DNA from: Bacillota bacterium | GTDB lineage: Bacteria; Bacillota; Clostridia; Caldicoprobacterales; Xylanivirgaceae | Length of the DNA: 35,688 nucleotides | Direction of reading: 5' to 3' | Assembly: GCA_023621995.1 (NCBI GenBank) | Contig: JAMOAB010000041.1 | Coordinates: 1-35,688 of the forward strand | Part shown: positions 2,478 to 34,943 of the stretch, piece after piece | Layout: the number at the start of each line of letters is the position of its first letter | Numbering within the stretch: the first letter of the stretch is position 1 | Made by a program: the position numbers and the translations under genes | Notes under the pieces: generated by a model | Seen by the model: only the letters and a program-made list of their open reading frames with translations | The model's database searches: none | What the model was told of the DNA's origin: nothing

Positions 2478-3278
2478 CTAAAACATTCCTGCATTCTTGT
2501 ATAATCTATAAAAATGATTTGTAGGACCTGCTCCTTTGCCTATCTCAAGCGAGTGGGCTATTACATCATCTATATAATCCTTTGCCTCAGATACCGCCCC
2601 TTTTATATCCATACCCAGCGCTAGGTTAGACGCTATTGCCGACGAAAGTGTACAGCCTGTCCCATGGGTGTTCTTGGTCTGTATTTTAGGTGATCTATAG
2701 TGGATAAATTCATCTCCATCAAATAGGACATCTATGGCATCCCCTTCTAAGTGTCCTCCTGTTATCAATACATTTTTAGCACCCATCCCAAATATGGACT
2801 TGGCAGCTTCCTCCATATGGCCAACATCCTCTATTGTCTTACCTGTGATCTTCTCTGCTTCTGGAATATTAGGAGTCACTACAGTAGCTATGGGCAGTAA
2901 TTCTCTAATCAGTGTCTCTACAGACTCTGGATTTAATAGATCATATCCACTCTTTGATACCATTACAGTATCTAAAACTATAAACTTAGGCTTATAAATT
3001 CTTAGTCTATTGGCAATTGTTAGAATACTCTCTGCCTGTGATACCATACCTATCTTTACTACATCCACATTAATATCCTTAAATATGGCATCTATCTGTT
3101 TCTCTATAATATCTGAATCTATATCCTGTACTGCAATTACTTCCTGCGTATTTTGGGCCGTCACCGCCACTATGACACTCATACCAAATAGTCCATGGGC
3201 AGAAAAGGTCTTTAAGTCGGCCTGAATTCCTGCCCCACCACTGCTATCAGACCCTGCAATTGTAAGTGCCGTTTTCAT
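2478..3278 (-). CDS. thiD: hydroxymethylpyrimidine / phosphomethylpyrimidine kinase
   Basis: 266 residues, ribokinase-like fold. ThiD carries out the two phosphorylations HMP to HMP-P to HMP-PP. Visible: N-terminal [20 protein letters not shown], the substrate loop [31 protein letters not shown] and the anion-hole motif [13 protein letters not shown] near residue 210. The ATG overlaps the thiC stop in an ATGA, so translation is coupled to ThiC, which supplies its substrate. No ThiE fusion is present; thiE is separate two genes downstream. Confidence 0.95.
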
Positions 3279-4576
3279 AGTACATCCACCTCCTTACCTT
3301 CCATAGCTCTGTTCATATTCCTAACCGCACACATCTTTCCACACATTGTACATGAATCGGAAAGCTCCGGCATAGAACTCTCCCTATATTCTCTAGCCTT
3401 TTTAGTATCTATGGCAAGCTCAAACATCTTCTCCCAATCTAGCTTCTGCCTTGCCCTGCTCATCTCATCGTCCCAATCTTGGGCACCTACTATTCCCTTG
3501 GCAATATCACCTGCATGGGCTGCAATCTTAGTGGCTATAATCCCCTCCTTCATATCGTCTATGTCTGGAAGCCTCAGATGCTCTGCCGGTGTCACATAGC
3601 AAAGGAAGTCTGCACCACTGGCAGAGGCTACAGCCCCGCCTATAGCACTAGTTATATGGTCATAACCCGGTGCTATATCTGTCACAATAGGGCCAAGTAC
3701 ATAAAAGGGTGCTCCACTGCAAAGTTTTTTCTCAAGGAGGACATTTGCAGGTATCTCATTTAATGGCATATGTCCTGGTCCTTCTATCATCACCTGTACT
3801 TTTTTATCCCATGCCCTTCTAGTAAGTTCACCTAAAACTATGAGCTCTTCTATCTGGCTTGCATCAGTTGCATCCTTTATACTGCCCGGCCTACATGCAT
3901 CTCCAAGACTTATGGTCACGTCATATTCTGCACATATATCTAATATCTCATCAAAATATTCATAGAAGGGATTCTCTCTATTATTGGCCTCCATCCATGC
4001 ATATACAAGTGATCCTCCCCTAGACACTATATTGGTCAGCCTCTTATTATTTTTAAAAGTATTTACAGTCTGTCTATTAAGTCCACAATGAATTGTAATA
4101 AAATCTACTCCATCTTCAGCATGTACCTCTATGACCTCTAAAAACTGCCTAGGTGTAATGTCTTTAAGTTCCCTGTCATGAAATCCCATAGCATCGTATA
4201 CAGGTACTGTACCCACCATGGCCTTAGACATAGCTATGAGTCTTCTTCTAAACTCCTGCGTCTTTCCAAATGAACTCAAGTCCATTATTGCCTCTGCTTT
4301 CATCTCAATGGCCTTTTCTACCTTCTCAAGCTCCATATCTATATCATTACAATCCCTTGACACACCTAAATTTACATTTATCTTAGTCCTCAGCCCCTCT
4401 CCTATTCCCTCTGGATCTAAACTCTTATGATTTTTGTTGGCAGGTATTATTATCTTTCCCTCTGCCATCTTTTCCATGAGTTTATGAATGTCCATGTTCT
4501 CCTTCTTTGCAACTACTTCCATCTCTTTGGTCACAATACCCTTTTGAGCTGCATCCATCTGAGTTGTATACTTCAT
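3275..4576 (-). CDS. thiC: phosphomethylpyrimidine synthase (radical SAM), short form
   Basis: 433 residues from ATG 4576, which has AGAGGAG about ten bases upstream; the longer open frame to 4639 has no Shine-Dalgarno and enters the leader. ThiC rearranges aminoimidazole ribotide into HMP-P using a 4Fe-4S cluster and SAM. Seen: [15 protein letters not shown] at the start, the [10 protein letters not shown] region, [57 protein letters not shown] and a C-terminal cluster motif CTMCGKMC. The length matches the short bacterial/archaeal form, without the long N-terminal domain of the E. coli type. The cysteine spacing reads CX2CX3C rather than the CX2CX4C quoted for longer ThiC. First gene of the operon, directly under TPP control. 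Confidence 0.95.
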
Positions 4577-4708
4577 AAATTCTATACTCCTCTCTAAGAT
4601 AAAGACTTTAATTGATATGCTAATTTGATAACTGATCAAGCCTACAGAATCTAGACTTGACTAACATTGACTACTTAGGCAAGCATATGTTGACATGTAT
4701 AAATAAAA

Positions 4709-4730: not shown

Positions 4731-4763
4731 ATATTCAAAGATATGTCAATCTAAAATATTTGC
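4727..4763 (-). promoter_or_regulatory. predicted antiterminator pairing of the TPP switch
   Basis: GCAAATATT (minus strand, 4763-4755) closes the aptamer P1 helix. It can instead pair, 8 of 9 bases, with AATATATGC (4735-4727), whose last four bases form the 5' arm of the UUCG terminator. The two structures exclude each other: with TPP, P1 forms and the terminator folds; without TPP, the antiterminator forms. The complementarity is seen; the switching is inferred from the known mechanism of this class. Confidence 0.55.
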
Positions 4764-4845
4764 TCCCTACGGTAGTCTTAACTACATCAGGTTCCAAGGG
4801 TTAGGTTTTACCTTCTCAGCCAAATGGCACCCCTGCAAAATACAT
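4757..4845 (-). promoter_or_regulatory. TPP (THI-box) riboswitch aptamer
   Basis: The minus strand carries the core landmarks in order: GGGGTGCC, GGCTGAGAAGG (the CUGAGA motif), ACCCTTGGAACCTGATG, a small hairpin GTAG-TTAAGA-CTAC, then CGTAGGGAGC. These match the conserved TPP aptamer, with J3-2, the GAACCUGAU strand and the GUAGGGA closing strand all present. TTTTGC and GCAAAT form P1. It precedes thiC, so it controls the whole operon. Confidence 0.95.
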
Positions 4846-33565: not shown

Positions 33566-34018
33566 TCATACTCTCAAGAATAAATTGAAATTTGTTAGCC
33601 CCCTATTTTGCCTATTCTTTTCAGTCAGCATTAGACCTTTCCCATATTCTACATAATAGTAATTATCGTTATACCATATAACATTTGTATCATTTACATT
33701 GAATTCAAATTTCGCAATCACTTCGTCATTTGAATAAAAAAAATACTTACTTGTCATACCTATGCCTAAGTCAATTTCCCGAACTTTCTTGCCAATTTTT
33801 GCACTATTAAAAGTATCGATTAATGCTTTGATTTCATCAGGACTTGTAATAGTTTTGCTGTCTGCACCATATTCGGGGTTTCCCATTGCAGTAACGATTC
33901 GAATTTTATCAATGTTCGAAGATACCAGTTGTTCTTTCAATAGTGATTTGTCTGAACAACCGACTAATATTGTCATTAACAATGATATTATCAATATGAA
34001 AATAATATATCTGTTCAC
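33566..34018 (-). CDS. putative lipoprotein
   Basis: 150 residues from GTG 34018, eight bases after AGGAGGG; a longer frame to 34084 would swallow that site. A type II signal peptide is clear: NRY, a hydrophobic core, and lipobox ILVGC with the lipid-attachment Cys at residue 21. The mature part (KIRIVTAMGNPEYGADSKTITSPDEIKALIDTF, then a Tyr-rich YNDNYYYVEYGKG end) is a small alpha/beta domain of unknown function, somewhat like DUF5301-type lipoproteins. It should sit on the outer face of the membrane. It is possibly intact, unlike several neighbours. Confidence 0.65.
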   Translation of the reverse strand: MNRYIIFILIISLLMTILVGCSDKSLLKEQLVSSNIDKIRIVTAMGNPEYGADSKTITSPDEIKALIDTFNSAKIGKKVREIDLGIGMTSKYFFYSNDEVIAKFEFNVNDTNVIWYNDNYYYVEYGKGLMLTEKNRQNRGLTNFNLFLRV

Positions 34019-34031
34019 AGAAAGCGCCCTC

Positions 34032-34151
34032 CTAATATTTTGACTTCTTCTTATATAGACGATAAAAGACTGAAAAAGTTTCAATCATTGTAAAAATACA
34101 CACAATCATCAGTTCAATTTCCTGTAGCAAAAGATCCTTTTTATTCTTCAT
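34032..34151 (-). CDS. possible small single-pass membrane protein
   Basis: 39 codons: charged start MKNKKDLLLQEIELM, hydrophobic IVCIFTMIETFSVF, then basic YRLYKKKSKY. It ends directly before the lipoprotein ribosome binding site, so the two could be coupled. No good Shine-Dalgarno precedes ATG 34151. It may be real or a remnant. Confidence 0.25.
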   Translation of the reverse strand: MKNKKDLLLQEIELMIVCIFTMIETFSVFYRLYKKKSKY

Positions 34152-34312: not shown

Positions 34313-34780
34313 TCATTTTAGTAATATAGAAAAAGCCAATATTAATAACACCTTTTTTGTATCACGCATATAATACCTATTAAAGATTCTTATCAACAGA
34401 AAACCGATAGTTAGACCAATTATAATACCTAATGTTCCACCTTGAGCAAAGGTAAAATCTAAAAATCTTACTGACGCCAAAGCAATAAATAGTCCTTCTA
34501 TTAAACCCGGTATACAGCTCATCTTCAGTGCAGTGATTCCAACCTTTTTTAGATCCTCTTTATCAATCCTAAACCCTGCTCTTAATAAAATGACTATTAA
34601 AGCAATTCTTCTCAGATCTTCTGATATATTAATCATGTCTCTATGAATCCAATTTAATGCATAGGGTCATAAGATGATTCCTAATATCAGCATTCCTAAC
34701 AATCCTGGCATCTTAATCTTTTCAAAGAGCTTGCTGGAGATCAGCCCCAATAATAAAATAATCGCCAAACTTATAGCCAT
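34313..34780 (-). pseudogene. broken cation:proton antiporter under a fluoride riboswitch
   Basis: ATG 34780 has a strong GGAGGAG site. The frame reads a typical antiporter start (AIILLLGLISSKLFEKIKMP, then GLLGMLILGIIL), then a TGA at 34669-34667 where relatives have Gly. It continues in the same frame with PYALNWI, ISEDLRRIALIVILLRAGF and KMSCIPGLIEG. Near 34428 FAQGGTLG is joined straight to GIIIGLTIGFLLIRIFNRYYMRDTKKVLLILAFSILLK, which in full-length relatives lies much further on, so the middle is deleted. A stop at 34313 removes the rest. About 155 codons remain of an expected roughly 400. Such CPA-family antiporters are known targets of fluoride riboswitches. Confidence 0.8.
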
Positions 34781-34809
34781 TATAATCTCCTCCTAAAATA
34801 TAATAAAAA

Positions 34810-34846
34810 ACTCCTACAGGCATATTTAAAATATTCCTGTAGGAGT
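34810..34846 (-). terminator. terminator of the fluoride riboswitch
   Basis: Minus strand ACTCCTACAGG (34846-34836) pairs perfectly with CCTGTAGGAGT (34820-34810) around an AT-rich region that can extend the stem, then TTTTTTATTA. The 5' arm contains the ACTCCTAC that is also the 3' strand of the fluoride aptamer, so ligand binding should block the terminator. Confidence 0.85.
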
Positions 34847-34890
34847 CATTAGCATTACGCGGTTTTGGTGAACCCCATCACCATTGCATA
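34836..34890 (-). promoter_or_regulatory. fluoride (crcB) riboswitch
   Basis: The minus strand reads GGTGATGGGGTTCACC, AAAACCGC, GTAAT, GCTAATGACTCCTAC. This reproduces the crcB-motif consensus GG-GAUGG-GUUC-CC, AAC-GC, GCURAUG-CUCCUAC almost base for base. The pseudoknot between GGGGTT and GACTCC is possible (with G-U pairs). It overlaps a terminator, as in an ON switch that allows transcription when fluoride is bound. Confidence 0.92.
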
Positions 34891-34914
34891 TATAACCTTG
34901 TATTTTCTGTTCAA

Positions 34915-34943
34915 ATCGTAACACACCACGGCTGCCGTGTCAA
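34915..34943 (-). promoter_or_regulatory. sigma-A promoter of the fluoride riboswitch transcript
   Basis: Minus strand -35 TTGACA (perfect, 34943-34938), 17-bp spacer, -10 TACGAT (34920-34915, 4 of 6). The spacer contains the palindrome CACGG-CAG-CCGTG. It starts 11 bp past the VOC gene stop. Confidence 0.65.

What the first reader, a model, noticed from the sequence alone, without database searches (positions are those of the whole stretch)
34313..34943. Intact fluoride riboswitch controlling a dead antiporter gene
Promoter, crcB-type aptamer, overlapping terminator and ribosome binding site all look intact, yet the gene they serve has an in-frame TGA at codon 38, an internal deletion near 34428 and a premature end. 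Either the loss is recent, or the leader RNA or short peptide keeps a use. Fluoride riboswitches in front of CPA antiporters are established; the switch outliving its gene is what is seen here.
Basis: partly seen in the sequence, partly recalled or inferred. Interest (0 to 1): 0.72.

Follow-up and report, generated by a model that had tools for sequence, protein, structure and literature searches.

The report
Fluoride switch before a dead antiporter
A bacterial RNA switch that senses fluoride is still intact in front of a gene for a sodium/proton antiporter that has recently been destroyed; the sequence makes this an ordinary, recently formed pseudogene, not a switch with a new job.

Summary
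A full-length fluoride aptamer (RF01734, 58.0 bits, E 9.9e-14) lies at 34891-34833(-). It has a sigma-70-like promoter, a terminator that overlaps the aptamer, and a ribosome-binding site. The gene behind it is a remnant of an NHA2-like Na+/H+ antiporter (PF00999). Three lesions broke it: an in-frame TGA at codon 38, a 228-bp in-frame deletion between short direct repeats that removes the ion-binding Asp-Asp pair, and loss of everything after residue ~231. The missing parts are nowhere else in the 3.08-Mb genome.

A codon-model test puts the death of the gene in about the last 5% of its terminal branch (best estimate 0), so an intact leader is expected by age alone. The one odd base in the aptamer, a G.U pair in the pseudoknot, also occurs before an intact antiporter in another genome. 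In 33 other switches plus 7 orthologous loci the client gene was open, so the dead client is unusual but not mechanistically new. Bordetella pertussis BP3410 (Mn riboswitch before a decayed Mn exporter) is a published precedent.

New facts: a second, older fragment of the same antiporter sits on another contig, and no Fluc/CrcB, CLC or complete PF00999 antiporter was found in this 98.5%-complete genome.

The parts
34915..34943 (-). sigma-70-like promoter, TTGACA - 17 nt - TACGAT, preceded by TG; its spacer holds a perfect 13-nt palindrome
   Evidence: weak on its own, same place as the promoters of orthologues
34833..34891 (-). fluoride riboswitch aptamer (RF01734), pseudoknot strands 34876-34871 and 34847-34842 (one G.U pair where most have A-U)
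   Evidence: cmscan 58.0 bits, E 9.9e-14; alignment with orthologues
34805..34846 (-). intrinsic terminator, arms 34846-34836 and 34820-34810, then a U run; 5' arm shares ACUCC with the pseudoknot, so the two structures exclude each other
   Evidence: fold -20.0 kcal/mol, z -7.4
34787..34794 (-). ribosome-binding site AGGAGGAG
   Evidence: read directly from the sequence
34667..34780 (-). 37-codon ORF, first part of the antiporter remnant, ended by an in-frame TGA at 34669-34667
34313..34666 (-). rest of the antiporter remnant, same frame, open until 34313; in-frame 228-bp deletion with junction at 34432-34422; all after residue ~231 lost

Best explanation
This is a recently formed pseudogene of a fluoride-induced, NHA2-like Na+/H+ antiporter whose regulatory leader has not yet decayed. 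Working copies act as a transcriptional ON switch: Mg-fluoride stabilises the aptamer pseudoknot, the terminator cannot form, and the antiporter is made to counter the acid load that comes in with HF. Here the leader should still sense fluoride and let transcription through (inferred, not shown). The message can give only a 37-residue single-helix peptide, because translation meets a TGA at codon 38. Even past that stop, the product would lack the ion-binding Asp-Asp pair and the last 40% of the protein. The deletion most likely arose by slippage or recombination between imperfect TTAGGTWTTAT repeats. The leader looks intact because the gene died only recently, not because the RNA has a proven new task.
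For: Shown: aptamer and terminator intact. All seven orthologous loci (L018-L024) carry the same switch in front of a full-length antiporter frame. The three lesions are described. The deleted stretch holds D158/D159, which align with the Asp-Asp of NHA2, whose double mutation abolishes transport (PMC8850199). Recency: window-branch omega 0.08 against 0.09 elsewhere, omega = 1 worse by 10.6 log units; dead fraction of 0.05 already costs 1.8 log units and 0.10 costs 3.3. The missing residues 123-192 and 232-401 are absent from the whole assembly. TGA is an ordinary stop here (7 of 24 long frames). Na+/H+ antiporters are the second commonest class of fluoride-switch clients (PMC11139923).
Against: The window copy differs from intact relatives at 8 of 67 invariant positions, TGA included, against 2-6 in six of the seven controls (8 of 75 in the most distant), so decay may be slightly older than the codon model says. 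The -10 box is weaker than in orthologues. The dating rests on about 142 codons, a long branch (about one neutral change per site), a fixed tree with modest support, and my own implementation. Transcription and fluoride binding were not measured.
Confidence: 0.87

Rival explanations
1. The switch has been kept for a new task: it now governs the next gene downstream on the same strand (a lipoprotein-like ORF, 33566-34084), or the short terminated leader acts in trans.
For: No convincing terminator between remnant and the downstream ORF: none found by the scan, and the only hairpin there folds no better than shuffles (-5.0 kcal/mol, z 0.0). The ORF is co-directional.
Against: The coding remnant is as little decayed as the leader, so the leader's conservation needs no selection. 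Another promoter-like site lies at 34307-34280(-), closer to the ORF. The ORF has no Pfam match and no known link with fluoride.
Confidence: 0.06
2. Sequencing or assembly artefact: the living gene is intact and the contig is wrong.
For: Draft assembly of 175 contigs; the deletion junction lies at a short repeat; no second strain to compare.
Against: Three separate lesions; the repeat is about 11 nt and imperfect, too short to collapse in normal assembly; none of the missing coding sequence occurs elsewhere in a 98.5% complete genome.
Confidence: 0.05
3. The remnant is still useful as a protein: TGA is read through or recoded, or the 107-residue frame is started internally.
For: The frame stays open on both sides of TGA and of the deletion; strong purifying selection on the branch as a whole.
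Against: TGA is an ordinary stop in this genome; the TGA stands where intact relatives have a conserved glycine, not selenocysteine or tryptophan; the ion-binding Asp-Asp pair and the C-terminal 40% are gone.
Confidence: 0.03

Closest known systems
Fluoride (crcB) riboswitch RF01734 in front of CPA-type Na+/H+ antiporters in Clostridia (L018-L024, L061-L063, L065, L066, L070-L074, L077, L084)
   Same: Same aptamer, same overlapping terminator, same gene family in the same frame and distance
   Different: In all of those the antiporter frame is open and full length; here it is broken in three ways
Bordetella pertussis BP3410: Mn-sensing yybP-ykoY riboswitch before a decayed Mn exporter (PMC8546581)
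   Same: Working ion-sensing riboswitch in front of an exporter/antiporter gene that no longer makes a working protein
   Different: There a 30-bp duplication inactivates the gene and is lost again under Mn; here a nonsense codon, a deletion and a truncation make reversal very unlikely. Ligand and RNA family differ.
Mammalian NHA2 (SLC9B2) and bacterial CPA antiporters
   Same: Closest solved relatives of the intact orthologue by sequence (E 1.9e-46), same Asp-Asp motif
   Different: The window remnant has lost that motif and the C-terminal part

Membership tests
Fluoride riboswitch (RF01734) | covariance-model match above the gathering score | tested here: met
   58.0 bits against 34, all 64 positions
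Fluoride riboswitch (RF01734) | pseudoknot between the P1 loop and the strand before the terminator | tested here: met
   GGGGUU/GACUCC pair with two G.U; the same variant stands before an intact antiporter in L066
Fluoride riboswitch (RF01734) | expression platform: terminator sharing sequence with the aptamer | tested here: met
Fluoride riboswitch (RF01734) | binds fluoride with Mg2+ and relieves termination | not testable with these tools
   needs in-line probing and transcription assays
CPA Na+/H+ antiporter (PF00999), functional gene | uninterrupted frame of about 390-400 codons | tested here: not met
   TGA at codon 38, deletion, truncation
CPA Na+/H+ antiporter (PF00999), functional gene | ion-binding Asp-Asp motif | tested here: not met
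   deleted
Pseudogene | sequence homologous to a functional gene, with disabling lesions and no intact copy at the site | tested here: met
   PF00999 52.1 bits over profile positions 3-145 of 375, lesions as above
Pseudogene | relaxed selection since loss | tested here: inconclusive
   no relaxation detectable on the branch, consistent with a loss too recent to leave a mark

The most novel reading that the evidence does not exclude
A fluoride riboswitch that has outlived its client because it was taken over: the fluoride-gated transcript, or the terminated leader itself, now serves the downstream lipoprotein-like gene or acts in trans in a bacterium that no longer has any recognised fluoride exporter.
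Probability: 0.05. Interest if true: 0.55.

Novelty: new member of a known kind. Interest (0 to 1): 0.25.

Why it matters
It is a clean snapshot of the order in which a riboswitch-controlled unit decays: gene first, leader not yet. It warns against inferring fluoride resistance from a riboswitch hit alone. More than 85% of surveyed reference strains carry a dedicated fluoride exporter (PMC11139923), so a near-complete 3.1-Mb genome with two dead copies of its fluoride-linked antiporter and no detected Fluc or CLC is a modestly useful case of lost fluoride defence. It does not change the understanding of riboswitches.

Tried and rejected
An empty-site comparison through the neighbouring glyoxalase gene gave nothing: the same-genus genome G001 lacks it, and G002's copies are elsewhere. 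Degeneration of the aptamer was considered because of the G.U pair in the pseudoknot, and rejected after the same variant was found before an intact antiporter (L066). A +1 frameshift instead of a truncation at the 3' end was considered by eye on the sequences; the alternative frame shows no convincing similarity after two residues. Recoding of TGA was rejected. Papers on a fluoride riboswitch before a pseudogene: none found in the held library (the Listeria paper it returned concerns intact crcB genes). No structure prediction was run, since the lesions decide the matter.

Full report
OBSERVATION. The window is contig C167 of a 3,076,023-base draft genome in 175 contigs, 98.47% complete. cmscan of the whole window gives two families: a TPP riboswitch at 4844-4747(-) and a fluoride riboswitch at 34891-34833(-), 58.0 bits, E 9.9e-14, all model positions matched. 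The genome has no second fluoride riboswitch. Upstream is TTGACA-17-TACGAT (34943-34915). Ten such sites were found in the region against 8.3 expected, so the site alone proves little, but orthologous leaders have TTGACA-17-TATAAT at the corresponding place. The terminator (arms 34846-34836 and 34820-34810) folds at -20.0 kcal/mol, within the range of six orthologues (-19.5 to -23.9). Its 5' arm contains the ACUCC that forms the aptamer pseudoknot, the usual mutually exclusive design. AGGAGGAG precedes the ATG at 34780.

THE GENE. The frame from 34780 matches PF00999 at 52.1 bits over profile positions 3-145 of 375. Against the intact orthologue of Clostridium sp. Cult2 (P0001, 401 aa) the remnant covers residues 1-122 and 193-231 only. 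Lesions: (i) in-frame TGA at codon 38 (34669-34667), where all seven intact relatives have glycine; (ii) a 76-codon, in-frame deletion whose junction (34432-34422) carries one copy of TTAGGTATTAT, while intact relatives have near copies of it at both ends of the deleted stretch, the signature of a deletion between short direct repeats; (iii) homology stops after residue 231 and a TGA follows one codon later. The deleted stretch includes D158-D159 of the orthologue. These align with the Asp-Asp of NHA2, the closest solved relative (E 1.9e-46), in which replacing both aspartates abolishes transport (PMC8850199). The product cannot work as an antiporter. None of the missing segments occurs elsewhere in the assembly. 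TGA ends 7 of 24 long frames of the window, so it is a normal stop.

IS THE LOSS RECENT? I fitted a codon model (own implementation, fixed tree of 9 sequences, 142 codon columns) with branch-specific dN/dS. The window branch has omega 0.08 against 0.09 elsewhere, and fixing it at 1 costs 10.6 log-likelihood units. Splitting that branch into a living part and a dead part (omega 1), the likelihood is highest at a dead fraction of 0 and falls by 1.8 units at 0.05 and 3.3 at 0.10, so about 5% is an approximate upper limit. At that limit the dead time is about 0.04 neutral changes per base (my arithmetic from the fitted branch length), or two to three in the 59-base aptamer. An intact leader is therefore what age alone predicts, and it is no evidence for a retained function. 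A milder warning: at positions invariant in all intact relatives the window copy differs at 8 of 67 (TGA included), against 2-6 in six of the seven leave-one-out controls and 8 of 75 in the most distant one. Caveats: long branch, few codons, tree support 67-94.

A SECOND DEAD COPY. Contig C114 of the same genome carries another piece of the same antiporter (residues about 12-113, 66-68% identical to P0001) without switch, start or C-terminal part. In the tree it groups with the window copy (support 74), and its omega is 0.46-0.49, so it died earlier (a dead fraction of 0 is disfavoured by 2.9 units). The genome has no CrcB/Fluc (PF02537) and no CLC (PF00654); its only PF00999 matches are these two fragments. 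Within the limits of 98.5% completeness no dedicated fluoride exporter is recognisable. CrcB is also absent from the same-genus genome G001 and from G002 and G003 of the same family; G003 has its own fluoride switch with a full-length antiporter of another subgroup, 48% identical. Another genome of the class (G047) has only a C-terminal fragment of the same antiporter, without a switch, so loss of this gene has happened more than once.

HOW UNUSUAL IS IT? I read the gene behind 33 other fluoride switches: the 29 others among the 30 best of 343 genomes of the class, plus four from nearer relatives. All 33 have an open client: 20 antiporters by tblastn, and by eye on the frames five CLC-like proteins, six CrcB and two others. 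One antiporter frame (L078) runs to the edge of the piece held. The seven orthologous loci are also open over the antiporter. The window is the only broken one, though best-scoring switches are a biased sample. One of the 33 (L066) has the same GGGGUU pseudoknot strand as the window before an intact antiporter, so that base is not a sign of decay.

MECHANISM. Inferred from the family: fluoride with Mg2+ stabilises the pseudoknot, the terminator does not form, and transcription continues. In working relatives this makes an Na+/H+ antiporter; such antiporters are the second commonest class of fluoride-switch genes and are thought to restore pH when HF enters (PMC11139923). Here the same event would give an mRNA coding for only a 37-residue hydrophobic peptide. 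A take-over of the switch by the co-directional lipoprotein-like ORF at 33566-34084 cannot be excluded, as there is no convincing terminator in between, but nothing supports it.

KNOWN OR NEW. A riboswitch ahead of a decayed client is known: in Bordetella pertussis an Mn-sensing yybP-ykoY riboswitch controls BP3410, a non-functional Mn exporter (PMC8546581). I found no report for the fluoride riboswitch in the held library, which lacks most subscription papers. I file this as a new example of a known situation, with low to moderate interest.

Noticed in passing
G000 contig C114:1984-2289 (L017:1486-1791; contig is L058): Second, older fragment of the same antiporter, without riboswitch, start codon or C-terminal part, directly behind a PadR-type regulator and a second small gene.
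   Followed up: partly
L025:1501-2241 (G047 contig C4): C-terminal-only fragment (residues 151-397) of the same antiporter with no fluoride switch found in that genome; like the C114 fragment it lies near a maltose-acetyltransferase-like gene, which hints at a shared ancestral locus.
   Followed up: partly
34927-34939: Perfect 13-nt palindrome CACGGC-A-GCCGTG in the -35/-10 spacer of the riboswitch promoter, absent from orthologous leaders and with no other exact copy in the window; a possible operator or chance.
   Followed up: partly
33566-34084 (-): Lipoprotein-like ORF downstream of the remnant, no Pfam match, co-directional and with no convincing terminator in between.
   Followed up: partly
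4747-4844 (-): Ordinary TPP riboswitch in front of thiC (3275-4639, -).
   Followed up: no
L014 / G006:C1:554642-554755 (-): Partial CrcB match (profile positions 63-100 only) just upstream of a second fluoride-switch-like hit (33 bits) that precedes a MutS-like frame; possible further decayed or shortened exporter.
   Followed up: no
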